Assembly (NCBI GenBank): GCA_032433595.1
Contig: JASWJB010000101.1
Coordinates: forward strand, 1 to 64,000
Reading direction: 5' to 3'
DNA: 64,000 nucleotides
Source of the DNA: Conoideocrella luteorostrata
Lineage: Eukaryota > Ascomycota > Sordariomycetes > Hypocreales > Clavicipitaceae
In this document: one piece after another, positions 2,543 to 48,030 of the stretch
Layout of the letters: the number at the start of each line of letters is the position of its first letter
Numbering within the stretch: position 1 is the first letter of the stretch
Made by a program: the position numbers and the translations under genes
The notes under the pieces: generated by a model
The model's input: the letters and a program-made list of their open reading frames with translations, nothing else
What the model was told of the DNA's origin: nothing
Databases searched by the model: none

Positions 2543-3301
2543 TCAAGAGAACAGCAGACTGTACGATGCCAGCGACGCTCTCGCACCAGCGATTCTTTGG
2601 CCGCGCTCCTCGGCCGCCGCACGTCTTTGTTTCTCCGCCTCACACAGGCTTCGCTCCGTTCTGGCCAGCTGCTCGGCCGCCTCACGCTCGATTTGCTCCT
2701 CTTTGGCCCGCTGCTCGGCCGCCTCACGCTTGTATTGCTCCTGTCTGACCCGCTCCTCGACCACCTTGCGTCGGCGCTGCTCCTCCCTGGCCAGCTCCTC
2801 GGCCGCCTCGAGCTCCTCCAGACGCAGGCATTCCTCTATTTCGCCCAGCTTCTCGGCATCTTCACGCCGGCGCCGCTCCTGTCTGGCTAGCTCCTCGGCA
2901 TCTTCACGTCGGCGTTGCTCCTCTGTGGCCCGCTCCTCGGCCGCCTCAAGCTCCTCCAAGCGCATACACTCCTCTATTTCGCCCAGCTTCTCGGCATCTT
3001 CACGCCAGCGTCGCTCCCGTCTAGCTAGCTCCTCAGCATCTTCACGTCGGCGTTGCTCTTCTGTGGCTAGCTTCTCAGCTGCCTCGCGTCGGCGTTGCTC
3101 CTCTTTACGTAGGTGTTGCTCCTTGTTGGCTAGCTTCTCGGCTGCCTCGCGTCGGCGTTGCTCCTCTTCACGTAGGTGTTGCTCCGTGTTGGCTCGCTGC
3201 TCGGCTGCCTCGCGTCGGCGCTGCTCCTCTGCAAGTTGCTGCCCGGCCTGCTCGTATAAATGGCAAAGTTGGAGCTGTTCTTGAACGTCAAGCACTAACA
3301 T
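2543..3301 (-). CDS. Coiled-coil protein, N-terminal part of a kinase-like family
   Basis: The ORF is open for about 250 residues from the methionine at 3301; an in-frame upstream ATG lies at 3331. After a short head (MLVLDVQEQLQLCHLYEQAG) nearly everything is a charged 14-residue repeat of the EEQRRREAAEKLA type, about 14 units, predicting a long helical coiled coil. Inner repeat pairs such as GEIEEC and RLEELEAAEE recur as larger blocks, showing internal duplication at DNA level. From general knowledge, such E/R-rich coiled coils form the N-terminus of a fungal protein family that ends in a protein-kinase-like domain, as at 17821-18993 here. No such domain follows: the frame closes after a short unrelated tail. 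I infer a truncated member, or simply a repeat ORF. The serine/arginine-rich plus-strand ORF across it is its antisense shadow. Confidence 0.5.
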   Translation of the reverse strand: MLVLDVQEQLQLCHLYEQAGQQLAEEQRRREAAEQRANTEQHLREEEQRRREAAEKLANKEQHLRKEEQRRREAAEKLATEEQRRREDAEELARRERRWREDAEKLGEIEECMRLEELEAAEERATEEQRRREDAEELARQERRRREDAEKLGEIEECLRLEELEAAEELAREEQRRRKVVEERVRQEQYKREAAEQRAKEEQIEREAAEQLARTERSLCEAEKQRRAAAEERGQRIAGARASLASYSLLFS

Positions 3302-4261
3302 GTTGACGGGTAGGTGGGCGGATACCCCCACGAGAGGTTATTGTCTGTCTGCAGATTATGTAGAGAAGAAGCAAGCCGCGTGTGCAGTCCGCATAGGGGG
3401 GCAAGCTTTTATACCTTTTTCGTCGCATAAAGTTTGGTGGCGTACGGGGCTACTTGGGGGTCAGTCATTGTTGGGGATACACAACAAACCTAGCATGTCG
3501 AATGGAACTGTGGGATATTGCGATGCAAAGTTCAAGGTAGCGTTGGCGCTCTGGACGGTAGGCACAAGGCGGCGTCGTCATCATCATTGGCATCGTCATG
3601 CATCGCATCGTGTGTGGGCTCGTGGGTGGGCATCAAAAGATGTAGTTCTGGCCGCATCGCGGCGAAGCGGCGCGGATTTTGGAGCGCTTTTGGCAACGGA
3701 TTTTGCAAGGCGAGGCGGACTACAGAGCAGGCGTTGATAGACTATGTAGCTGCCTTGCCTGCATGTGTGAGTGTGTGTGTGGGTGTGTGCCTCGCCTCCT
3801 TGCCCGCGAACAACGCCCTCGCGACCGTCTACGTCCCCGGCACAGTTATCTGCAGTCGCAGCTCCTCCATCCTGCTCCTCGGCGGGCAGCGCACAAAATG
3901 CCGGCGGCATGGGTGGTTCTCCGCTCGGGTTGCGGCCAGGAAAGGGAGAACTGAGAGTAAGCCACTGGATACGGGAGCTTCCTTGGATATCTTCAACAAT
4001 ATCGCAAGATTACGGGCACTCCGGAAGCCAGCTAGGACGGACTGTCTGATAGCAGGCGACTCACACGTGCAGATCGAAGGTTACAGCTGCGTTAACTTTG
4101 TACTCAAGAAGACTTGGTGGACACAGGCGAACCCTACGAATTCGCGATGCTACGCCCTTTGTTTTCCACTAATATTGAATTATTTAATCGGCTGTATAAT
4201 CGTGGAATTCGCTGGAATAGCTTCCTTGCGCTCACACAGCTGGAGCATAAGTCCGGCCCGG
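3302..4261. other. Gene-less stretch with a fragment of the foldback repeat
   Basis: No recognisable gene. Bases 3880-3950 match both arms of the foldback element at 59630-60097 (shared words GCACAAAATGCCGGCGG and ATGGGTGGTT). A GTGTGTGTG stretch lies near 3766-3790. A 386-codon open frame crosses the region but has no domain and mostly follows repeats. Confidence 0.6.
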
Positions 4262-4680
4262 TCATCTACATCATTGAACGGTATTATAGTTAGTGGTTCT
4301 GCAATACCAAGCAACATTGGAAGAAGGCCTCGACGTTGCTCACAAGGTCTCTTGTCCAATGCATCCAATTCCTTCAATTCGTTAATTCCGCCGTACAAGC
4401 AAGGATTCAAGACCTCCTGCCGCTTTGGACGGTCAATCATGGTTATCTGCATCATTGAACGCTATACAGTCAGTGGGTTCTGCATCGTTGAACGCTATAC
4501 AGCCAGTGGGTTCTGCATCGTTAAACGCTATACAGTTAGTAGGTTCTGCAGTATCAAGCAACATGGGAAGAAAGTCTTGACGCTACTCACAAGGTCTCGT
4601 AAAATTCATCAAATTCGTCAACTGCGCTGTACAAGCAAGGATTCAAGACCTCCTGCCGCCGCAGACTGTCAATTATAGCA
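4262..4680 (+). repeat. Tandem duplication of about 245 bp
   Basis: Two diverged copies (about 4262-4440 and 4508-4675) share ACGCTATACAG, TCTGCA, CTCACAAGGTCTC and CAAGCAAGGATTCAAGACC. Between them lie two extra short repeats of the TTGAACGCTATACAG unit. Because copia integrase remains follow 300 bp downstream, the block may be decayed gag or leader sequence of that element. That is inference; I see no zinc knuckle. Confidence 0.55.
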
Positions 4681-4959
4681 CAACCGACTAGGTCATCCTA
4701 GTGAGATCACCATCGAATGCCTAGGAATTCAATGCCTAGGAGCCCAATTGAAAGGTCCTTCAACGGTTAAATGCGACCACTGCAGCTGTGGAAAGATGCA
4801 ACAACAGGTATCGTGAAGAAGGCCTGCTTGGCCAGAATAACCGTTTGAGGAGATCTGGATCAAGGAAGCAAGTCCATAACTAAGCAACGCACAGCATATT
4901 AGGCCTCTAGTTAATCTGGCCGTCAGAATCAGCAATAAGATCAACAGCAAGAGCGAATC

Positions 4960-5510: not shown

Positions 5511-7850
5511 ATCGGTCAAAATTCTAGTCAGGAAAACGGTCAGGAAGACGGTTACGATAGGAGCGGGAGAGGGGAAAAGTCAGCTCATATGTTGCTGCCC
5601 ACGCGAGAAATACGGAACACTCGTCCTTGTCCTTCTCCTGCTCTGTCTCTGTCACTGCCACTGCTGCCACTTCTGCTCCTCTTCTGCTAGCATGGAAAAG
5701 TTGTCAGTACGCTGCATGGGGCATTGGTATGGCTCTGACCAAATAGTCATACGCTTGCTCCGAAATTGTTTGTCCCACACTTGCTTTCGGATCGAGTCAT
5801 ACGCGCAGCCCCTTTTTATCACGCCGTCGTCTTTGAGTAGCCTCAACTGACTGTATTGTCGCAGGCTGAGAGGTCGACCGCTGGTCGTCTCGGCGCCTCT
5901 GTGGCATAGGTGGCGGGAGCCGTTCGTTTGTACGCCTGTAGCATTTCGTCCTGCGCATGTCTATTCAGCCCTACCACGGCAATGGCGACACGTACAACGG
6001 AAGCGTCGCAAAATCCCCATCTTCCCAGTTAATTAGAGTACGACCTGCGTATGAGTGCTTTTTGGTTTGTGTTCAGTTGCTCTTATAGCGGATTCGGTAT
6101 CGTGTTCAGCCTGGACTGACCTTTTGAGTCTCGTTTCGCCGAATCTTTTGCTTGTGCTTCTCATCACTGTTCCTGCCGAGGCGAGTAGCCGAGATACTGC
6201 TACCTAACATCTTTGCTGTCACCCTTGCCGTTGTTCTTACTTTGGAGCCGGTGCTGGTGCTAGCTGGTTCTGGCGCTGCGTACAATACAGGCGTGGTGTA
6301 TAATTAAAGTGCGATGGTTGGGTTTGAACCTGTAACGACGCTAGGGAAGGCGGTTGGGAAGGTGGGGTGGGTAAAGAGGGAGGAAAGAACCGAAAGAACC
6401 GAAAGAAACTCTAGGTTTTAAGTTTGTGAAAACATTGTAAATTTAATTTCGGCGTGACCCATCGAGTTTGTCAGCCTGGTTGCACATTGCACGGTTACAC
6501 GGTCTCATGCACGTAAGATGCACGCTTGGCCTCCCCCAACGACGACAGCTAGCCATTATACTCGATAGATCTCATTGGGAAGGTCTGGGAATCCTGGCGA
6601 ATATCATCAGCAACATCATCCGCAACAACAGCATCGTCCGTAGCATCGTCGGCAGCAGCATCGTCGGCAGCAAACATTATCCGTACAGCATCGTCAGCAG
6701 CAACATGATTAGCATTAGCGTCGTCCGAACAGCAACATCAGCAGCAACATTGTCCACGCCAACATTATCCGCAGAGCATCTTCCGCAGCCGCATCGTCAG
6801 TAGCGGAGGTCACATGGTCTCAGGCATGCAAGATGCAAGCTTGGCCACCCCTTCAACAAGCCCGACTTTCTTCATCTACTCACCTTCTGTTGGTTGTCAT
6901 GACTCGGAGTCGTTCTCGCCAGCATCGGTGGAGCTGTTGCAGCGTTCCTGAGTTGCTGAATCAAATTTGCGGCAGACGGGGAACCTCCTACCGTCGTCGA
7001 CGTGCAAGTCTGCCTGACTGGCACAGTGAGTGCCCTCAGGTCAGACTTTTTGAACGACTTTACCTTACTGACACAGTACCCTCGAACCAGACTTGTTGCA
7101 TGTACGATTTTGCCCTCGATATATACTATGACAACCTGGCGTGAACGAGCCGCGTGTTCCTCATTCTTGCACCATGGTTGGGTCCTATGGGCAATGACAA
7201 AGTGTTCCCTTGCAAGGGCTGCGGAGAGGTTCGTATGTATCCAACGCCCAGAAAACTTGACCAGAAGTTCTGCTTTTGCGGCACGCTTAATCAGTATTAA
7301 TGCTGACTGTAATTTTTATTTCTAGATTCTCGAGGAAGGCAAAGCATTTGAGTTGGTTGTGTCGCACAGCACGGGAATCTTCGAATCGTTCGCAACAGCA
7401 TCGTCCACAACAACCTGCACCGGCAGCAGCAACATGTCCACTGCAGCATTGCCCGCAGCAATATTATCTGAGGTATCGTTCGCGACAACATCTTCCGTAG
7501 CTACATCGTCCACATCATCGTCCGCATCATCAGAGTCGTCCAACAGGTATTACGCCCTAAGCATACAGGCTTGCATGTCAGTGCCCTCGCTCCGCCTCTA
7601 CCGCCCATCAACCCTCGTCACAAAACAGCTATGCGCGAAACAGTGAGCAAGACTCCATGGGCACCCCCCAATAGCCCTTTTAGCATGGTGGATAGATATA
7701 CCGGGGATAATGAAGTTGCTGGCGATCAGTTCCGTAATCTTAAGCACGTCATGGACAACTACGACACAGCCCGTCTTGTGCTATTTGGCCTCCTGTCTCG
7801 TATAGTTAGTGAACTCGAACCCTCCCGACTTTAAGCTACATGTCTTGTCT
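5511..7850. other. Gene-less stretch with simple-sequence tracts
   Basis: No domain-bearing ORF. Imperfect GCA/ATC trinucleotide-type tracts (CATCGTCGGCAGCAG, CATCGTCCACATCATC) occupy about 6600-6800 and 7380-7545 and open spurious reading frames. GAAAGAACC is repeated near 6385-6410. Confidence 0.55.
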
Positions 7851-8583: not shown

Positions 8584-11032
8584 GATGACCCGCGCGGAGT
8601 CGTAGAACTAGCAATGCACCCAAGGCCATCGGGGGAGAATATCATGCAGCTAGGAAATCCCTAACTGCGGGGTCTATAGAGAAAGTCAGAGATTCAAATG
8701 GTCTGCCCTACACATATCCCTCAATGGTTGCCTTCAGGGCGAACCCACGTCGTGCGCGCATTGGAAAATAGATGACACTATGCCTCTCAAATACCTAATT
8801 GGAGTCATAGGCTGGTTCCTATCGTGCCGACAGTCGAAAGTATGGATTGGTTGAAACTGTGCAACCTGGAACTGCATCCCCGTACACATTCTACGTAGCA
8901 CTAAACAGCATGCTGGCAAGGTACGCCGAGATCATAGATGTTCTCTACAGCAGCAACATCTTTAAGATTGATGATTGCTTGCGGTTGAGCCTTTCGATCG
9001 CTTCTTTCGTGGTAGTTACGCTTTTATCTCTCTGTTTCTCGCAGTCGGTAAATTGTAACCGTGGGAAATGCATCAGCAGTTCGACTCTTGCCATACCTGC
9101 ACGAGAATGACGTCGGCGCCGGCCGCTGCAAGACCAACGGCGATAGAGCGGTCGCGAGAATCTTAGGCAGCTTTCTTACGAATCAATCCGACAACCGACC
9201 CATAGCTGTTGCGAGCATCATGGGAAGCTTCTACACGAATTGACCCGACCATCATGGAATTGAATAGCCAGCTTCTTAGCTTGCAGCATCCTTTCATATC
9301 GACCTAAACGTCATCGAGCTCGATACTGCCATGAGCATCCTAACCGGCAGCCTCCTTACGAGTCTAAAGCAGATGGAAGTTGTCGACCGGTCGTTTAACT
9401 CTGGGTTATTTTCGAGGTTGACTTCTCGTCCGGCACCCGTCGCTAACGAAGATATGAAACGAAAACGGAATTAGCGGAAGCCGAACTCTGTGATTGAGAA
9501 GATGAAGCGAATATCCGAAGGAATTGAGCCCTACTCAGGCTGTGATCAAACCGAATATAACAGCTATCGCGAGTATCTTGGCGGGCAGCTTCGTATAAAC
9601 TGACCCGACCGTTATCGAATTCGATAACCGGCGCGAGCATCCCGGCCGACAGCTTTATACATATTAACCTGACCGTGAAATTCGATACTGCCCCGAGTAT
9701 TTTCGCTGGCTGCTTTGTATAATTCAACCCAACCTTTGAATTTGATACTACCGCAAGCATCTTGGTCGGCCGTGTCTTTGGAATCAATCCGACAACCGAA
9801 CCCATAGCTAGCACGAGCATCTTAACCGGCCGCTTCCTTCGAATCCTGACCGGTTCCTTCTATCACCGCCCCAGCAACCTCCTCTTGGCTACGGTGCCCC
9901 TGGCCCGTATGGCGCGGATTCACAGCAATCATTGTCTCCTGTCGGCGGCGACGCTCCAGGAGCTAGGTATGGAATGCATCCAGGCCAGAACCCCCACGGG
10001 GGCTTTGGTCAGCCTAGACCTGATGCTGCTCTCGCCGCACAATTGGGCAGCATGAATCTACCTGATCTTCTCCGCCGACAGCTTCCTTCGAACCCCGTCA
10101 TCGAATTCGATAGCTGCTGCGAGTATCTTTGCCGGCTTCCATACGAAACAATCCAACCATCGAATTCAATAAGCCGACCGCACGGAATCAGCGGAAGCTT
10201 AACTCTGTGATTGACAAGATGAAGCGACGAGCCTCCTCAGGTTGTAATGACCCCGGATCTAGAGGGGGAACGGGTCAAGGGTGTAAACGACAGCTCTTTG
10301 GCCAATTCCGGATCAAGAAGCAGAGAAGATATTTATGCAGGGATCGAGCAAACACATTTCACCTTGTATAGGCACAAGACATCATCAATTTCATCACTTT
10401 CTATTCATTCCTATCAATTTTCTACTGTGCAATTGCTCTGACCTCAATATCGCAACAAAGTGACCATGCCGATCGAACTCGACGGCTCCCCCCGAGCATC
10501 CTAACTGGCAGCCTCCCTACGAGTCCGGAACCGACTGTCATCGAATTCGATAGCCGCCACGAGCATCCCGGCCGGCCGCTTGGTGCAAATCAACCCGACC
10601 GTCGATTTCGATACTCTACACAGCTTCCTAACCAGCAGCTTCCTTACTGTCAGGAAGAACCCGCCCGTCAACGAAGGATCCGCAGCAATCTTCCGTCTCT
10701 GCAACACAACATGGTACGATGGGCTCGTGGTTTGAAGAATGCCTTACATTACCAACTAGAAATTCATCTACAAGAGGTCTATTTCCTCGTACAATATCCA
10801 GAATATAAGGACAACTCCGCGGTAACACAAGATCCACCTCCAAGCTGCTCACATTGTTGTCGGAACAATTTACCACTTGACTATGGAGCAAGAGTGTAGG
10901 CTTCCTGAACTGTTAATCCAGTGGCTCCAATTAGGGCTTACACTCTACGCGACAATTGTGATACTCCAACAGAATTGCCCCCAAGTTCCTCAGCAGCCAG
11001 CTTACCTAGCTTACTAACCCACTGTGTTACCA

Positions 11033-27689: not shown

Positions 27690-28495
27690 TTTGGACTGCG
27701 ACTTCAACCAGAGAAGACCTCCCGCGAAACTCGCCCAGCAGGCGCACCAGCGCAGCCCCAGTGCAGTCACCAATTTTGTGGACAACAAGGTCGAGTCCAT
27801 CAAGTTGAATGTCACAACGAGAAGCACGATCGAAATCGACTACACAGACCCTGAGTGTAGAAGAGTACATGGCGCGTTAATGATGCAGTCCGAGGGTATC
27901 GTCGAATTCGGGTGCCCGGGTCGAACGTGAGGACGGTCAAGTTCACGTTCAGACCACTAGATGTGATGGTAGGATGCTGACGATGATGACAACTATCAAA
28001 ACCGGAATCCGATGTGAGAGAACACCGAGCCCCGACGGCTGCGAACGAACACGTCACTTTACGTGGTTATCCCCATCGACATGAGCGCAGCCTGCACCAA
28101 GCACACCATCGGGAACGCCTGTGGGCACATACATAGGCGCGTCCATCTTCAGGCATTGTGGTGGGCACACCGACGACACCAGCAACAACACCAACCGCAA
28201 CGACCATATTCTGACAGTACACAACGACGACGATGACTGCACAGCTGCGTCGAGTACACCATCCAGCGACGGTGACAACGGCGACACGAGCTACGACTAC
28301 ACAACATCCGCGACCGGTGTGAGACCAACCACCGTTGAGCACGCGACCGAATCCCTCTTGGATTTGATCAATATCACGATCAAGTCGATGGGCACGTACG
28401 ATGACGTGATTCCTCCCATGGCCGGGAACATCGACCCCAACATGGTTGTGACCTTGTTGCGCGAGTTCTCCAACAACCTGTACATCCGCTGCTAG
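27690..28495 (+). pseudogene. Decayed unidentified coding region, possibly foreign
   Basis: Three or four plus-strand frames in succession look protein-like and are broken by frame changes: SIKLNVTTRSTIEIDY and GIVEFGCPGRT (about 27797-27927), VKFTFRPLDVMVG (about 27940-27978), SLYVVIPIDMSAACTKH (about 28055-28105), then a stretch ending at the stop at 28493-28495 with an acidic Asn/Asp/Ser/Thr-rich part (28180-28300) and AGNIDPNMVVTLLREFSNN. I recognise no family. The composition resembles the minus-strand remains at 32040-34650. Whether this is one gene or several, and whether it is viral, cannot be told from the sequence. Confidence 0.35.
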
Positions 28496-30612: not shown

Positions 30613-31768
30613 TCGAATATAGAGGGTACAGGGCAAGGCATGTATATACAGCTACATTAAGCGGTTTGCTTTTCTGACTAGAAACGTCTGGTATATATAG
30701 CCTACATGTGTTCACGCGTGTTTGCTTCACGGAATGCAGAAAAATTTGTAGCCGCCTGTGTTTTAGAAAATACCCCGCGATCTGAAGTTGTACGCTGAAC
30801 TCGTAGCGGGTATTTTGTAGCTAAAGGAGGTCTTTTACGGTCTGGATTGCCGCGAGCCGTTCATGTTGCGCTGAAGGTGAGCTGGTCGTCAAGCGATGAG
30901 AAAGCGCGCGCTTCTTGATTCATGGTACATCCGAAGAGCTTATCCTCTAGGCAGCTTTGTACTGTTGAGCTAGAATGGCGGCCAGGGATTCAAAGGTTGT
31001 TGAAGAAGATGTCATAAAAAGCCCTTATGGCTATTTATATATTTATATACCTGAGTCTTTAGTGCATTTCCTGATCCCGAACCGTTACTCGTCCTTGCGA
31101 GTCGTCTCATTCATTCCTTGCGCAACCTGCTCTCATCAAGTCTCCTGCACGTGGCGTTCGGAAATTATTGCGTACAGACGTATAAAGCTCATGTACCGGG
31201 CCAGGTCTTGGTCAATGTTCACTGAGAAGAGCATATGTGCCTTTCGGGGATCTCAACGGCTCCTCGTCAGGATGCCGGGATCCAGGATAACATGGTAATG
31301 AGTCTAGCAGTTGCTCTGGGCTTTGATAGCATACAACTAAATGTCCAAGTAACCCCCCCGTGCCTATAACTGGAAGGACTTCTCTTAGCTCTCCGACAGA
31401 TATGGTAGTGCGACACTCAGGCATACGCCGAGAAGTCTCTCTTGGACTAACGTCGCGTGAACGTGAATCTACGGGAGCGCATGGATATCAACACGGAAGT
31501 CGCCCTGCCTCAGATAAGAACCCGCTACAGAACAGCAAATCCTCATACAGCTTTGCCTTGGGAACATGGTTCCGCTCCGATATGTAAGGATTCCCTCTGT
31601 AGGTTAAATGTATGTGTATGCGCAGTAGAACAAGACACGGGGGGCGGAAAGGAGCCTCTAGGGTAGCCCGAATCATTTCACATGAGGATTTGGGCTTGAC
31701 GGATTGGGCAGATCAGATGCGATAGCTATGAGTAGGAGGCTTATGCATCTCGTGAGATAACCACCATG
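30613..31768. other. Gene-less stretch
   Basis: No gene I can support. A 70-codon minus ORF at 31212-31424 (VIGTGGLLGHLVVCY) looks protein-like but is too short to place. Confidence 0.35.
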
Positions 31769-32040
31769 GAATTCAATTGCTTTTTCCCCGCGTTCAAGAA
31801 GCGTGTCCTTGGCTGGAGCTTTGCTCTGCTACGTATTACGATTGAATTGCTGTAATTTGAAGTGTGAAGTAGCTTTAATAATTACCGAGCAACCTGACAG
31901 CATTTGATCTTGCTATAAGCAAGGTCTCTACGAATTACGGAAGGTCTCTGCATTCACAAGGTTTACAATAGTGTTGCTGGCAGTGTGTCAGACACCGGTA
32001 TACGTGAGTGGTGGGTGTGTTCCGGGTCGACAAAGTGGGT
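31769..32040 (+). repeat. Repeat arm, left copy (LTR-like edge)
   Basis: Matches 36915-37190 in inverted orientation along its length: GAATTCAA...CTTTTTCCCC at the outer edge, TTGAATTGCT, CATTTGATCTT, TACGAATTAC, then GTTGCTGG...GTGTGTCAGACACC, GTATACG, GAGTGGTGGGTGTGT and CGACAAAG at the inner edge. TGTCAGACACC is a plausible LTR start. The inner side touches decayed coding remains. Confidence 0.7.
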
Positions 32041-34650
32041 AGGTAGTCGCCTAGCCAGCTGGTTCTGTACGGACATATACGCATAGACGATCATGAACGA
32101 CGCCAAGCACGCGATGTCGAATGAGAAGGTGCCGAGGACGGGCGTAATGCTACTGATGTCCAAGGCGTTCCCGAGAGATCTGGGGTGCATGCTCCGCTGA
32201 GACGTCCATGGTTGCCACCTTCGGCAACGTCATGGACTGTCTGAAGTCGTAGAATGACTCGAACCCGTCCGTCAAGTCGGTTGTCGTGCATCGGTCCATT
32301 TCTCGCGCTAAAACTTCGACATGGGGTGGAATGATAACCTCCTTCAGGTACAAATACATGTCGGCGGCTCCTAGCGTGCCTATGTACTCAGTTATACTCT
32401 AGGGGACTCCTGGAACCCATGAGCCAGAAGATGGTTCTATGATAGATAGTAGTCTTTGAGCCTGTCGATGGTCGACCGTAAGTGAACAAAGGTGTTGACG
32501 GAGACGCCGTCCCACTTGACCGTGAAGTGGTTGACCTCGTAGTTCTCAGCTGCGATCATCCAGACGATGACGAACGCGGGTTCGCTGTCGGTCAGAACGC
32601 CATAATGTGTGGGTGAATGGTACATCTTCTCGTACATCTGCACCAGCTCATCCAACTTCACGGGACTGATCGACACCGAGTCTACGGCGATCGACTCCTT
32701 GTCTCCCACGTACACCGGTACGGTGGAGAACTTTCTTCAGCATCGTTACTATGCTGTTATCCAAGGACATGGTCATGTTAGTGCTCTATATCGATGCTTG
32801 GTACTCGACTTCGTCAATGGTGATGTTGGAACTGAAGTTCTCGGACCAATGCTCGTCCTCCTTCTCGTACTCCATCACGTCGCTGTTCTTGATTGCGTGC
32901 ATCGCGGGTACGATGACCATGTTCACCATCCTTCAGTCATAACAAATTCTGTCCAAGTTCATGGGTCTTACCATGCCGGTCAAAGACGCCATCATCGATG
33001 TGGTCGTCTTGATGGGTTGCCTATGCATCGTATTGTGTCTGGTACAGTTGTCGTACCAGACAGCGTTCCTCACCCTGACGGCGTTCGTCTCCGGGTCCGA
33101 GAGCAGTACCATCCCCATAACTATCTTCCTGTTTCTGACCAGCTTAGACAACGAGTGCGATATCATGGGGTTACTCACAGGCAACGTCGTCGAGATCATC
33201 ATATTCGGCATCTCCATCAACTGCGTTGCATGCTCAGGGGTCGGACAGTCGTTCATCATGACCACCATCCTCTTGCCGGTGTTCATGGACTTCACCGTAT
33301 TTATGACCGAGAACTAGTCCATCGACAAGCACATAATCACGTTGAGACCTCTGCCCAACAGCTTGGTCATGACTATGTACACGTCCCTGTGCACGAACAT
33401 GTGGACGAACACCTTCTTGTTCCGGAACACCGACTTCTGCAACAGGTCGAACATTAGCCTGATCATACCCGCCTGCCTACCCGAGGTGATGTTGGCACAG
33501 AGGATGTCCATCGAATCGTCACATCCGTCGTCGAACATCATTCGTTCCGACGTCCATCAGACACATCATGTCGCACATCACAGTCGATATGGTCTCGTTC
33601 ATCCTCATGTGCCTGTTAGTGCCGGTTAACCCAACGAAGTTGCACTGCATCTGCTCGACCGTCGTCGGCATGTCCAACCAGTCCTTGGGGACTCTCTTGA
33701 ACCCGTAGATATTCCTGTTCCCCCAGCCACGTGATCGCATGATCTCTTTATGCTAATCATCTTGGTTATGTTTATCAAGACCATCGCATCGTTACACGTT
33801 AGCTTGTCCACGTTTGGATCCGCGATCATCCCACTAACGATACCCCTGAACCACTGGACCCTGTTTGCTATGGTCCTGATGTTGGTACTAATCACGTTCG
33901 TAGATATCTCGTCATCGTCGTTGTCGTCGTTGTTATGGCTTTGTGCTGTTAGTATTAGTTATGGGTGTACTCCGTACTTATGAACAAGTTAACAACGATA
34001 CCATGATTCTTACCATTATGTACTCCGTGTGGAACTTCGAGGGTGATAACAGCCGCACCACGAGGGTCAAGACAGCGACCGAGTACACTGAGCAGGAGAG
34101 GGGCTAGCTCATTAGGACAACCAAGCTCGCGTAGATATTCGCTAACGAGTTGCCTCCTCTGAGCGCGAGCGAGACCCTGTCCGCGCTGTTTAGGCAGAGG
34201 GGCGTCTTGTCACTGGACTTCTTCACCAGGTTCCTCGTGGGTGTATTCAGAAGATCAATAGCCTTTCACCCTGTAGTGAAAGGTCTCGAGCGTAAGTTCA
34301 TGTCGCTTACCAGATGGAGGACTCCAAGCGCAGGGGCAACAGCATCGACATCAGGCAAGCAAACGATACCCATGCCGACGAGTTTGAGTGGATCGAACCC
34401 ATGTCCATGACCACGCACTCGACGATCGTCGTTGTTCAGCTTCGGTCGCATTTCGAAGAGCTCCAAGTTCTGCTCGGATGCGGGTTCGGGTTCGAGGACA
34501 GGTGTTTGCAGAGGTTCATCATTAACGTCATCATTATCGCTGCTCGACTCGGTCTTGTCATTGCTACTGGTGTTATTGTCGTCGTCGTCGTCATCGTCGT
34601 CGTCGATGTTCCGGACGACCTCTCGCGCTAGTATGCCAGCGCTTCAATGT
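32040..34650 (-). pseudogene. Large decayed unidentified gene of probable foreign origin
   Basis: Successive minus-strand frames read as protein over about 2.6 kb, broken by at least six frame changes and several stops: an acidic Asp-run start (NIDDDDDDDDDNNTSS, about 34610), NTPTRNLVKKSSDKTP (about 34245), TNIRTIANRVQWFRGIVSGM (about 33880), FKRVPKDWLDMPTTVEQMQC (about 33705), KKVFVHMFVHRDVYIVMTKL (about 33415), RNAVWYDNCTRHNTMHRQPI (about 33075), MYEKMYHSPTHYGVLTDSE (about 32635), FESFYDFRQSMTLPKVATMD (about 32250) and MIVYAYMSVQNQLARR (about 32080). It is methionine-rich. Arginine is written almost entirely AGG/AGA, unlike genes nearby. I see no polymerase, helicase or protease motif and recognise no family. 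A viral origin is possible but not shown. It ends at the repeat arm. Opposite-strand ORFs up to 282 codons are shadows. Confidence 0.5.
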
Positions 34651-36083
34651 CCCAGGTCGGCCGGTGATGGAAGTAATACCCATCATCTGATCAAGGACTG
34701 AATCAGTCGCGTCACCTGCCAGAATATCCCGGTCAGCGCAAGATTGCAGCAAGTAACATGCTGACGGACAGAGCACACGAATGAGGTCAAGGATTACTCA
34801 CCACTAGCTGCATTAGCCGCGCCTCTACGAGCAAATTTTGGAGTCCAGGCCTTCTCATGCCCGGAACCGTGACTCTGCCGGCCCATATCGTAGTTTTACG
34901 AATGTAGCATAGCTTCGCTGGTGGAGAGGGTAGAGCTACGGATATGGCGGAATATTGGTACCGTGAGCATCGTCTGTTTCTATCGTCGCGCCGCCGCGTT
35001 TTTCTGGCGCGTGTTGCTGCAAGCAAGCCATCACTGGATCGGGGCCGGGCGGCAACGGGGGACAGAGGACGGGGCGGATAAATAGACAGAGATTGATAGA
35101 TAGATAGACAGAAAGAAAGAAAAACTTACTTACGGAGTAGTTCGTTGTGGATCTGCGACCGACCCCACCAGAACAGCCAATGCACACAGCGCTCTGTGGT
35201 TAGGTTCTTGGTGGACGCTAAGCAGAAGCAAATATGGAAAAATAGCCGTAGTGTAACTAATGACTGGTGATTTAGTCCAAGGGATAAATCGGGTCGTAAA
35301 TTCATGTTGGCAGTAGCACAAGGACGTCGTAGTCCAAGCAATAAGGTATATCGCGGTGGATAATATTATTTAGACAATCGTCCAGGTGTTGCCCCCCCAT
35401 AGTGGGTAACGGCGGCGTATCGAGAATCGCTCCTAAGTGAGATGATACAATTGATGGACGATTAGTCTACCACTATTGAGTGCAAGGGTGTGCCCCGTAG
35501 CGAACCCAATACTCCACTGTTTACTACGTGACCTAACTTCATTCTCAACAAGTCCCCAAAAATAGTTACAGTCTGTGCCCATAAATTTCCAACCCCAGAG
35601 TCGCGTTGCGGCACGCCAGCTGCGTTGGAAACTATTGGACCCCGACTGTACTCCGGAACTGGCTGCTCAATCTAGCCCAAGTAGTCATGGCTGCGCCCTA
35701 TCTACAAAGGGCCTTATTACCCTCGCTTCTCTTCTTGTTCTCTCGACAAGTTTATTGTCTTGTCATTACTTATCGCAAGCAAACCAACCTCACTGCCTTT
35801 CCCATCACACCACTATCAAGGCAAACGAGCCGGCGAATCACCACGCCAAGTTCATCAAGCGCTTCGCTACCGAAGAAGCGCCGCGCAGCGGAGAGCTCCA
35901 AAGCCGGTACCTCTATCGGCTGAGGAACATGCTGTGAACCGAAATCGATTATGCAAAGTTCGGTTCGTTAAGCCAAAGTACTCGAGCGAAACGATGATTA
36001 CTATGACAGGTATTTTTCGGAAAATGGCAAAGGTATGTAGCCACCTATGAAGTCAACGATTTGTTGGAATGTAGTCCCTGCTT
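34651..36083. other. Gene-less stretch
   Basis: Contains a TAGATAGA/GAAAGAAA tract at 35095-35122 and an exact TACGGAGTA at 35131. ORFs up to 120 codons near 35575-35937 show no motif I recognise. Confidence 0.4.
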
Positions 36084-36556
36084 ATGCAAACATACAGATA
36101 CTGCGACGAGAAGAACGTCGGAGACTGGGAGAAGACAATCCGATCTCAACCTCGAGAAACTACGATGGACTCGTTCCTTTTTGTTTATGGGAACTGTAGC
36201 GTTGAGTCGTGGGGAACAACATCCGAAGAGTATATGTGCCAGTTCCAACAGCTGTCTACGACCGTCACAGGCCAATATATGAACTGTAACGACAGTAGAG
36301 AGGTATGCAAGGTACTACGAACAACTTTACATCCTATTTGGTCATCACGCAGAGCCCACTGACAGGTCTCAAGTACCATCATAATGTGCTAGTTCCTAAG
36401 TTTGGGCCTCCGTGCGCGCCGAATATCGATGGTAAGCCTGTGCTTAATGTCGACAGTATAAAAGTCATCTTAACGTTCAATTTTGCGTACAATACAGGTA
36501 CGTTCAATCTCGAACGACATCGCATCCGGCTGGCTGGTTGCTACCAGATCCTGTGA
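36084..36556 (+). CDS. Unrecognised gene, two exons, probably 5'-partial
   Basis: Exon 36084-36302 and exon 36353-36556 join in phase across a 50-bp intron (GTATGC...ACGCAG). The joined frame is about 140 residues with five cysteines (YRYCDEKN, YGNCSVES, EEYMCQF, YMNCNDS, GPPCAPN) and ends after LAGCYQIL at a TGA. The cysteine spacing suggests an extracellular or disulfide-bonded protein, but no signal peptide is found in this frame. A sixth cysteine lies near the end. A true first exon may lie upstream of 36084, where a protein-like piece DYYDRYFSENGK occurs near 35995-36033. I do not recognise the family. Confidence 0.35.
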
Positions 36557-36914
36557 CATACCGGAGCGTGGCCCGGTGAACTCGTCGAGGGTTTCTCAGC
36601 TCGGGTTGGGGCTAGCAAAGGGGGGACAGTTAGCAGGCTACAGGAGGAGACTAGAATAAGGAAGTCGTTCCTAGTCTGCAGAGGGCTGCCCGCCGTACAC
36701 CACGCAGATTCAAGGTACGTCTGGCATGGGAATAATCATTCTCGCTTGGGCAGCACTCATTACCAGCACCAGCACCAGCACCAGCACCATAATTCAACTA
36801 CTCGGATGCTTTCCCTGCGCCTACCACGTCGATACGATAGCTGGCGTGGCTATCTCGTCTCTATTATCCTTTGCAGTACGTACACACGTACGCACGCACG
36901 TACGCACGCACGTA

Positions 36915-37190
36915 CTTTGTCGGCCCAAAGCACACACCCACCACTCGCGTATACTGGTGTCTGACACACATCCAGCAACGCTCCGTACACCCTGTCAAGG
37001 TTTCTTGCAGGAACCTTGTGTAATTCGTAAAGATCTTACGTATCGTAAGATCAAATGGTTTGTCAGGTCGTCGCTCGATGAAATCGAGTTATTGCGCACT
37101 TCAGTAGAGCAATTCAATCATAATGGGTAGTTGAGCAAATCTCGCGGCAAAGACGCACTTCCTGAACTTGGGGAAAAAGTACTTGAATTC
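36915..37190 (-). repeat. Repeat arm, right copy (inverted)
   Basis: Reverse complement of the arm at 31769-32040, diverged. The minus strand reads GAATTCAAGTACTTTTTCCC to GGGCCGACAAAGTACG. A CACGTACGCACG tandem (36877-36915) abuts the inner end, and CACCAG copies lie at 36760-36787. The two arms enclose about 4.9 kb. Confidence 0.7.
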
Positions 37191-37228
37191 AATGATGATG
37201 TCCCCTGAGAAGGATGAGCCTCCTACCT

Positions 37229-45939: not shown

Positions 45940-48030
45940 CCCCATTACATGCATCAATCACTTCTCGTCCATCCTGGGATGCATCGTCATCGGAATGCAT
46001 CACGTCCAGGTCAGCCTCATCTGCTCTTCCAGTGGCAGCTTTCTACTGTGATGATAATCTAGCAGGCGCTTCGTCGCTGCCATCCTCGTCGTCGCTGTCG
46101 CTGTCAACCGTAGAATCCATGACCGATCTTACTTATTGGTTTGGTGGTGGTGGCGGCGACTGTCGGTCCGGTGCCGTTCTCAAGGCTCTTCTTATTCTTC
46201 TGCCCTGGCTTGCCGTCGTCTGCCTCGCCGATGCCCTTTACCACGTCATCAATGTCGTCCAACAACCCATGTCTGCCGGAGCTCCCCGACAGCTCGTCGT
46301 TGTCCGAAGGGTCGTCCCACGTGTTTGGCCTTTTGCTGGTGGCGGCGGCAGCAGCAGCACACTTGCTTCTTCCACCACCACGGCCAATGCCCGATGTCTC
46401 CAATGGTGCTGTTTTCAGCCGGCCGAGAGCAGCAAAATCGTCGTCCAAGAAGCTTGCGAAGCCGTCATCGCTCCCTCGTTCCGTCTTGACCCGCGGTTTC
46501 GCCGAGACATCATCGTGCACCTCCACAGCCTTTGGCCGGGATGATGCCTTCTTTCCGTGTGTGACATGGCCGCTGCCTTTGATGAATTTTTCTTCTTCTT
46601 TGCTGGCTCATGATAGTCGTCATCATCACGTCCGCCAAAGCTTTTCCCAGCTCCAATCTTCTTGGATTCCCGCGGTCCCATCCTTCTAATCATGGCCTGG
46701 TCTGGACTTCTGCATCTAGGTTCAGTTGCGTTTCCCATTCAGCAACAAACTCGTCCAGGACCCGGCACCACAAGTCCTTCTCGCTGAGGCTCTCCAGTGC
46801 CTCATGCTCCTCCTTCTTCTTCTTGATCTGCTCCTTCATCTTGTCGAGGTGCTCTTGGGTAAGAGACCAGATGGGCAACTGGATTTTGTTGTTGGAAGAC
46901 ACTTTACCCCCGTAGAGGAAGTCCTCTTTTATCAGACGGGGGATTCCCCGGAAATGTAAGAATGTATAATCAATGGTGCGGACATACCGAGAGAAGATAA
47001 TCATAATCCCGCGAGCCTCCCCCTCCCCATCCTCCTCCTCCTTCTCCTTCATCTTCGTAGTTGTCGTCATCATCGGATGCATCAGCATCTTCATCTTTCG
47101 GCTTGGATTTATCGTCGTTCTTTCCCATCGGAAACGGCTCGTACTGGCGGATTCGACCTCGGACGTCAAACGCGACGAGATAAGACGTAGGCAGTTGCTT
47201 GTTCAGTTTCGGCAGCCCTGACAGACTCTCTACATCAGGCTGCACTTTCACTTGCTTCTCGTCTAGCTGCAGCTCAAAGTGAACCGTCTTGTAGTCGTTG
47301 AATTCTTTTTAGTCCTTGATAAAGGCAGGGCCTATGGCACCACTGATGATGTCCTCAAGTCTCGCCTTCAAGTCATCGGTCCACGTGCGGATGGGCAGCT
47401 CCGTGACCAAAACGTCGTTCCGAGTCTCTAGATCCCACTTGATAATGCCATTGAACTTGTACCCGTCTGGTCCGGCAGGTTCCACCATGCCTTTCCAACC
47501 ACTAAACCCAGGCTACATCGGCTGGAACTCGGATTCACCTCCAGAGCAGCCGCCCTCTAGACGGCCCATCCGCCTCCTGAGGTTATTGACACTGTCCATG
47601 GGGTTAAAGTTTGGAATAGACGTGCTCCACCCGGTTCCGATGCCATCGGTGCCGTTTACGAGGATTGTCTGCTGCAGAGACGTCTCGCCATGGTGGTACG
47701 CCGTCTGCTCCGAGACATAGCCGGCCAGCTCGATCACCTTCTGATCCTTGGTCAAGTTCCGCTTGAAACTAGCATACAGAACCTTGCGCTGACCGGTTTT
47801 AGCCCATCAACCAAAGACAGAATAGACCGTATGTTGTCTGCCATGCTGAACAGGATGAGCTCCTTATTCACAAAATCAGCAAAGGTGATGGACTTACTTG
47901 TTGGCGTGATCGAGGTACGTGCCGGGAATAAAGTTGTCCAGCCATTCCTTTCTCGCATCAGCCTTCTTCTTGGAGAAGGCCAGGTCCAAGAGATGTGTCT
48001 CTTCTGTTTGCATGACAGTAAAGCAGACCA
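45940..48030 (-). pseudogene. TOP2: DNA topoisomerase II gene copy with internal deletions
   Basis: Minus-strand frames follow type IIA topoisomerase in order: LDLAFSKKKADARKEWLDNF (about 47990), SITFADFVNKELILFSMADN (about 47890), VIELAGYVSEQTAYHHGETS (about 47740), NGTDGIGTGWSTSIPNFNP (about 47650), ETRNDVLVTELPIRTWTDDL (about 47400), TVHFELQLDEKQ, SYLVAFDVRGRIR (about 47170), DYDYLLS, then after a likely 109-bp intron (46879-46987) LPIWSLTQEHLDKMKEQI and LSEKDLWCRVLDEFVAEWET, and an acidic/basic C-terminal tail (VKTERGSDDGFASFLDDDF). Lesions: a 4-bp duplication at about 47895, a one-base loss at about 47800, a TAG at 47513, a TAA at 47309, and two internal deletions. The first deletion, right after SLQQTI, removes the block with the catalytic tyrosine; the second fuses GRIR to QYEPFP. 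The ATPase domain is absent. Clearly non-functional. Confidence 0.92.

What the first reader, a model, noticed from the sequence alone, without database searches (positions are those of the whole stretch)
32040..34650. Large decayed gene with foreign codon use between inverted repeats
About 2.6 kb of minus-strand protein-like sequence, in at least six frames, belongs to no family I recognise. It is Met-, Asn- and Asp-rich and begins with an Asp run. In the section 32945-33541 nearly every arginine is AGG or AGA, which is unusual for a filamentous ascomycete. It stops at one arm of an inverted repeat pair (31769-32040 and 36915-37190). An endogenous viral element or horizontally acquired gene is my leading hypothesis; a rapidly evolving host orphan is the alternative.
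Basis: partly seen in the sequence, partly recalled or inferred. Interest (0 to 1): 0.75.

Follow-up and report, generated by a model that had tools for sequence, protein, structure and literature searches.

The report
Broken DNA-virus genes in fungal genome
A stretch of a mould's chromosome appears to hold the decayed remains of genes from an unknown large DNA virus, which would matter because almost no such viruses are known from fungi.

Summary
The decayed, foreign-codon stretch is real but probably not one gene: gene A (minus, about 33960-32150) is followed by pieces that read better on the plus strand (gene E, about 33980-34450; likely, not proven). A second copy on contig C347 (69% nt) continues into two more genes, C and B, in a compact 5.4-kb block; cellular gene families lie on both sides of it. 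Between the copies pN is 0.23 and pS 0.51, and 8 of 11 frame changes in A are private to one copy. Two database proteins match gene B, one from Claviceps digitariae. Searches found no family for A, B, C or E. A codon table trained on B and C alone fits a broken extra family-B DNA polymerase on C328, while 14 of 14 host-like ORFs reject it. I conclude that this is a fragment of an endogenous large dsDNA virus of unknown lineage. Its link to the polymerase rests on codon usage only. The inverted repeats are two copies of a dispersed ~410-bp repeat, not element ends. Searches for capsid, D5 and PIF-0 genes found nothing, two of them without a valid control, so the virus class is open.

The parts
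32150..33960 (-). Gene A, broken: pieces in changing minus frames at 33958-33761, 33722-33546, 33556-32936 (one TAG at 33316-33314), 32736-32440, 32398-32153
   Evidence: Second copy on C347 (L021 about 6600-4866), 69% nt; minus better in 13 of 15 blocks; pN<pS; codon scores mostly positive, but negative at 32275-32499 and -0.051 per codon for 32153-32398; no significant Pfam, PHROG or PDB match, no IMG/VR relative, no protein-database relative
33980..34450 (+). Gene E, broken; plus strand likely, not proven
   Evidence: Plus better in 3 of 4 blocks; a C347 plus-strand piece matches it at 67% and 64% aa, but a minus-frame C347 piece across the A/E border also matches (43%, with stops); no Pfam family
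34450..34650 (-). Acidic Asp-rich piece; possibly the counterpart of acidic piece F of C347. Low confidence
   Evidence: Codon scan peaks on minus at 34375-34674, but the host table scores higher or about as high at 34450-34674; synonymous codons slightly favour plus; no alignment to C347
31975..32199 (+). Short stretch with the foreign codon signal, unidentified. Low confidence
   Evidence: Codon scan +3.4 and +10.9; not shown to be gene B by shuffled alignments
31642..32046 (+). Left arm: copy of a ~410-bp dispersed repeat (LTR-like look is recalled)
36913..37199 (-). Right arm: partial copy of the same repeat, opposite orientation (weaker matches reach 37258)
35817..36585 (+). Relic of an unrelated repeat gene with a copy on C8 (DUF3435/FluG-like by recall only)
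   Evidence: 73% nt to C8; no Pfam match over cut-off in the pieces tested
34793..34919 (-). Second, inverted piece of the same C8-type relic
   Evidence: 76.5% nt to C8

Best explanation
Viral DNA entered the nuclear genome by an unknown route; the fragments then lost function by stops and frameshifts and were rearranged among host repeats. Shown: two diverged copies, coding divergence before decay, mostly independent frame changes in A, shared non-host codon usage, cellular gene families on both sides of the C347 copy, and a broken family-B DNA polymerase with the same codon usage on another contig. Inferred: that polymerase and block come from one virus or virus group; that A, B, C, E are viral; that E lies on the plus strand; that the copies are separate integrations. 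No present function is proposed: most likely a molecular fossil.
For: Second copy on C347; that contig carries kinase, ZIP transporter and enterotoxin-A-like genes on one side and an FAD-binding gene on the other. A codon table trained only on B and C (496 codons) picks out C+ B+ A- E(+) and acidic F-. Synonymous-codon LLR per codon: 14 of 14 host-like ORFs negative (-0.146 to -0.379); of 16 test rows 14 positive (+0.116 to +0.369), one A piece -0.051, and one row (-0.439) entered out of frame by my error, in frame +0.237. A table trained on the polymerase alone scores 5 of 5 block rows positive and 3 of 3 host rows negative. Extra DNA_pol_B on C328, with a motif-A-like stretch and YGDTDS aligned to a solved polymerase (motif names recalled). 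pS 0.51, pN 0.23 over 537 codons. Gene B relatives P0003 (61%) and P0004, Claviceps digitariae (49%).
Against: No NCLDV capsid (no control rang), no PIF-0 (no control over cut-off), no D5_N. No IMG/VR relative of A, B, C, E. The polymerase lies on another contig; only codon usage links it. The codon tables rest on few codons and on host ORFs of my choice, none known to be highly expressed; borders of several test pieces were set after seeing the codon scan, and antisense frames also score (C347 E: +45.6 plus, +43.0 minus). In the window 3 regions outside the block (6 of 637 scan windows) also pass the scan threshold. The dN/dS figure is biased low because the best frame was picked per block, and it includes 34436-34332. 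Gene B in Claviceps could mean a fungal gene family. No Pfam gene over cut-off was found left of the window copy in the 3 ORFs tested. Both structure models were too poor to use.
Confidence: 0.7

Rival explanations
1. A non-viral mobile element of fungi (cargo of a large transposon) with its own codon usage, moved around and decayed.
For: Copies on more than one contig; a repeat-gene relic and dispersed repeats lie next to the window copy; gene B has a relative in Claviceps digitariae.
Against: No recombinase or transposase was recognised in the pieces scanned; the flanking repeats are a common independent family; the C8 relic shows no foreign codon signal (L022, 0 of 58 windows above 12); the polymerase with the same codon usage is of the PF00136 type.
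Confidence: 0.11
2. Rapidly evolving host orphan genes or a small fungal gene family that decayed here.
For: Gene B has a Claviceps relative; the only other one found is unnamed.
Against: Codon and amino-acid usage far from the host-like ORFs; compact genes without recognised domains; same usage as a divergent extra polymerase.
Confidence: 0.07
3. Block and polymerase are both foreign but of different origin; the codon likeness is convergence, and the block could come from another virus type or a transferred cellular segment.
For: Different contigs; no gene links them; hallmark searches were negative.
Against: Each codon table recognises the other set and rejects the host ORFs tried; AGG is 45 of 75 Arg codons in B, C and polymerase against 40 of 343 in the host ORFs.
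Confidence: 0.12

Closest known systems
Giant endogenous viral region of Rhizophagus irregularis (PMC10640383; abstract and passages seen)
   Same: Large dsDNA virus remains with a family-B DNA polymerase in a fungal genome
   Different: A 1.5-Mb region with five Nucleocytoviricota marker genes in an arbuscular mycorrhizal fungus; here scattered kilobase fragments with no recognised marker but the polymerase
Claviceps digitariae hypothetical protein E4U55_004984 (P0004) and unnamed P0003
   Same: Predicted 393- and 386-aa relatives of gene B, 49% and 61% identical to it
   Different: Neighbouring genes not seen; no function assigned; no relative of A found
Polintons and polinton-like viruses
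   Same: Integrating dsDNA elements with a family-B polymerase (recalled)
   Different: Theirs is protein-primed (PF03175, recalled); the C328 pieces match PF00136 and, under cut-off, PF03104

Membership tests
Endogenous large dsDNA virus (general) | Family-B DNA polymerase distinct from the host set | tested here: met
   C328:32115-32582, PF00136, 66.7 bits, besides hits on four contigs that I take for host polymerases, untested; 351-aa piece E 1.4e-23. On another contig than the window; no tree was made
Endogenous large dsDNA virus (general) | Embedded in host chromosome | tested here: met
   C347 copy has cellular gene families on both sides; the window copy has them on the right only among the ORFs tested
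Endogenous large dsDNA virus (general) | Capsid or virion morphogenesis gene | tested here: inconclusive
   PF04451 no match, but no control rang
Nucleocytoviricota | D5-type primase-helicase | tested here: not met
   PF08706 no match; 3 of 14 controls rang. The remains are partial and decayed
Naldaviricetes (baculovirus-like) | PIF-0 / p74 | tested here: inconclusive
   PF04583 no match; 1 of 14 controls rang, none over cut-off
Polinton / polinton-like virus | Protein-primed polymerase PF03175 | tested here: not met
   Polymerase pieces match PF00136 and PF03104
Polinton or other TIR element | Terminal inverted repeats bounding the block | tested here: not met
   The window arms are dispersed repeats; inverted repeats in L021 are at most 33 nt
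Negative-strand RNA virus insertion | L polymerase relics in genome | not tested
   The PF00946 search did not complete
Starship-type transposon | DUF3435 captain recombinase | tested here: inconclusive
   Pieces at window 36078-36556 and on C8 gave no DUF3435 hit; the likeness is recalled

The most novel reading that the evidence does not exclude
The stretch preserves genes of a previously unrecognised lineage of large dsDNA viruses of Pezizomycotina, distinct from nucleocytoviruses and baculovirus-like viruses, with relatives that may persist in Claviceps, where a full-length gene-B protein is predicted.
Probability: 0.4. Interest if true: 0.88.

Novelty: new variant of a known kind. Interest (0 to 1): 0.72.

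Why it matters
PMC10640383 (abstract and passages) states that no dsDNA virus infecting fungi is known and that viral polymerase genes were found in basal fungi; it also cites nucleocytovirus genomes from crustal fluids where Ascomycota are the main eukaryotes, as a hint that such viruses infect fungi. Fossils in an ascomycete would give direct genomic evidence and provide gene B, the polymerase and the codon signature as probes for living relatives. Among the titles and abstract starts listed in nine library searches (several lists were cut) I saw no such report for Ascomycota; preprints and most subscription papers are not held.

Tried and rejected
Rejected: inverted repeats as ends of a transposon (three close pairs, on C101, C148 and C288, do face each other, but 35 of the 40 copies listed are in no such pair). 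Less likely: one minus-strand gene beginning at the Asp run. Not supported: gene B remnant at 32040-32200. No clear RIP: product/substrate indices 0.65/0.99 in the block against 0.78/1.22 and 0.85/1.24 in the rest of the window, so only the second index leans that way. Not viral: the ~77-bp repeats beside F are dispersed through the genome and occur in the window. A weak IMG/VR match to the polymerase (L069, 42 residues, 38%) was not used. Weak PDB rows (best E 0.017 for gene B; 1 for A; 0.6 for C) were taken as chance. Two structure models were too poor and no fold search was run. The first gene-A protein search could reach lengths 331-1053 only; a longer frame was also empty. Odds changed on checking: the four confidences had summed to 1.08, and the strand of E and the left flank of the window copy are less sure than first written.

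Full report
1. What is in the sequence. The stretch was re-read and its ORFs listed. The foreign codon use is real: in 32936-33556, 13 of 15 Arg codons are AGA/AGG and Met is 12.1%, against 76 of 257 and 1.7% in 13 pooled host-like ORFs. GC at the three codon positions is 0.38/0.37/0.80 against 0.55/0.44/0.51.

2. A second copy. The own-genome DNA search found one diverged copy, on C347 (69% nt over window 32195-34430). Protein searches with an A piece and an E piece found only these two loci; so did a minus-frame piece across the A/E border. Of 19 ungapped blocks of at least 30 bases, minus is the better coding strand in 14. From 33972 to 32186 minus wins 13 of 15 blocks (summed BLOSUM 1684 vs 1420); from 34469 to 33980 plus wins 3 of 4 (501 vs 423), mainly through 34331-34147, and 34436-34332 favours minus. 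Over blocks where a minus frame was best, pS is 0.51 and pN 0.23 (537 codons; dN/dS about 0.32, biased low by choosing the best frame). Within A, of 11 junctions between successive minus-best blocks where the frame changes, 8 change in one copy only and 3 in both (counted by hand), so the copies decayed largely independently.

3. The C347 block. A codon table trained on B and C alone points to C+ 3056-3589, B+ 3655-4818, A- about 6600-4866, E about 6640-7340 (plus best in most rows, minus in some) and an acidic minus piece F at about 8400-7950 of L021; scores are about zero or negative between 7500 and 7950 and negative left of 3000 and, apart from low-complexity stretches near 9300, right of 8400. 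Cellular gene families lie on both sides in the contig. A 437-base piece with part of F and the adjoining repeat has an 88% copy on C507. In 300-base windows above score 12, the 64-kb window has 13 of 637: 7 in gene A, 3 at 2801-3001, 2 at 28101-28201 and 1 at 46101; thirteen other loci (one overlapping the window by 4 kb) have 2 of 1017, one antisense to a long ORF in L051 and one the F copy in L065; L021 has 27 of 97. Gene E and the outer parts of A in the window did not pass that threshold.

4. Relatives. Gene B has two database relatives, P0003 (386 aa, source 'lgn', 61% over 43% of the query) and P0004, Claviceps digitariae hypothetical protein (393 aa, 49% over 37%), 44% identical to each other. 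Against P0003, gene B of C347 has two stops and two frame changes. Gene A has no relative within reach of the protein searches. No significant match: Pfam for A, B, C, E, PHROGs for A, B, C pieces, PDB for A, B, C; E was not compared with PHROGs in its plus frame or with PDB. No IMG/VR relative for A, B, C, E (pattern-based scans). Gene B is predicted to hold a long helix at residues 25-77, but the model is poor (pLDDT 37.6).

5. The polymerase. A search of the own genome with PF00136 gave seven matches on five contigs; four look like the host's own polymerases (my reading, untested) and the fifth, C328:32115-32582, is extra. Its 351-aa piece matches PF00136 at E 1.4e-23; a second piece matches the exonuclease family at 19.8 bits, under the cut-off of 23; a third has a partial NADAR match, 25.2 bits, under its cut-off of 35.1. 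It is about equally far from archaeal (46 bits), Pol alpha (38), Pol delta (35) and poxvirus (about 31) enzymes (archaeal and poxvirus labels recalled), so it is hardly a recent copy of a host gene. The stretch between the motif-A-like segment and YGDTDS is shorter than in the aligned enzyme and the gene is split over frames, so it is broken. The block-trained table scores above 12 in 17 of 23 windows there, up to 52; synonymous-codon LLR per codon is +0.369, +0.237 and +0.328 for its pieces. Trained on the polymerase alone, the table scores 5 of 5 block rows positive and 3 of 3 host rows negative (the host table there includes those three ORFs).

6. Explanation. A large dsDNA virus integrated, and its pieces decayed and scattered. 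This accounts for the compact block, the common non-host codon usage, coding divergence between copies before decay, and the extra polymerase. Not shown: that block and polymerase were one genome, the class of virus, the number of integrations, and the time. Searches for an NCLDV capsid (without a working control), PIF-0 (no control over cut-off) and D5_N found nothing. The RNA-virus test PF00946 did not complete.

7. Surroundings. The arms of the inverted pair are copies of a ~410-bp repeat with 40 copies listed (40 of 191 candidates scored), some with 5-base direct flanks (read by eye). A relic shared with C8 lies in two inverted pieces at 34793-34919 and 35817-36585; naming it DUF3435-like is recalled, and Pfam did not confirm it.

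8. Literature. PMC10640383 (abstract and passages) says that no dsDNA virus of fungi is known, reports a 1.5-Mb nucleocytovirus region in Rhizophagus, and cites virus genomes from samples dominated by Ascomycota. PMC12768974 has no 'fungi', 'fungal' or 'Ascomycota' in its main text (passages). In nine library searches (listings only, several cut) I saw no report of endogenous large dsDNA virus genes in Ascomycota.

Noticed in passing
L038:5826-6911 (C347): Gene with a heat-labile enterotoxin alpha-chain domain match (PF01375, 38.2 bits) on the same contig as the block.
   Followed up: no
window:35565-35650: An 85-base stretch 95-96% identical to copies on C57, C6 and C150, far more alike than its neighbours: perhaps a young short repeat.
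   Followed up: partly
C148:35596 and 39667; C288:5326 and 13004; window 31642 and 36913: Three close pairs of the 410-bp repeat face each other; chance or a composite element.
   Followed up: partly
L065 (C507:8500-18400): Repeat-filled contig stretch with RIP-like dinucleotide indices (1.38 / 0.52).
   Followed up: no
L068:118-1094 (C328): Cys-rich plus-strand gene convergent to the polymerase with the same codon usage (507-1091: LLR +0.327 per codon); no family found.
   Followed up: partly
L068:3493-2879 (C328): Partial NADAR-domain match (25.2 bits, below cut-off) directly upstream of the polymerase.
   Followed up: no
window:26513-27118: Short direct repeats (spacings of 14 and 17 bases among others) within a repetitive open frame.
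   Followed up: no
window:38729-39112: Ubiquitin-like sequence on the minus strand, seemingly decayed (recalled from the translation).
   Followed up: no
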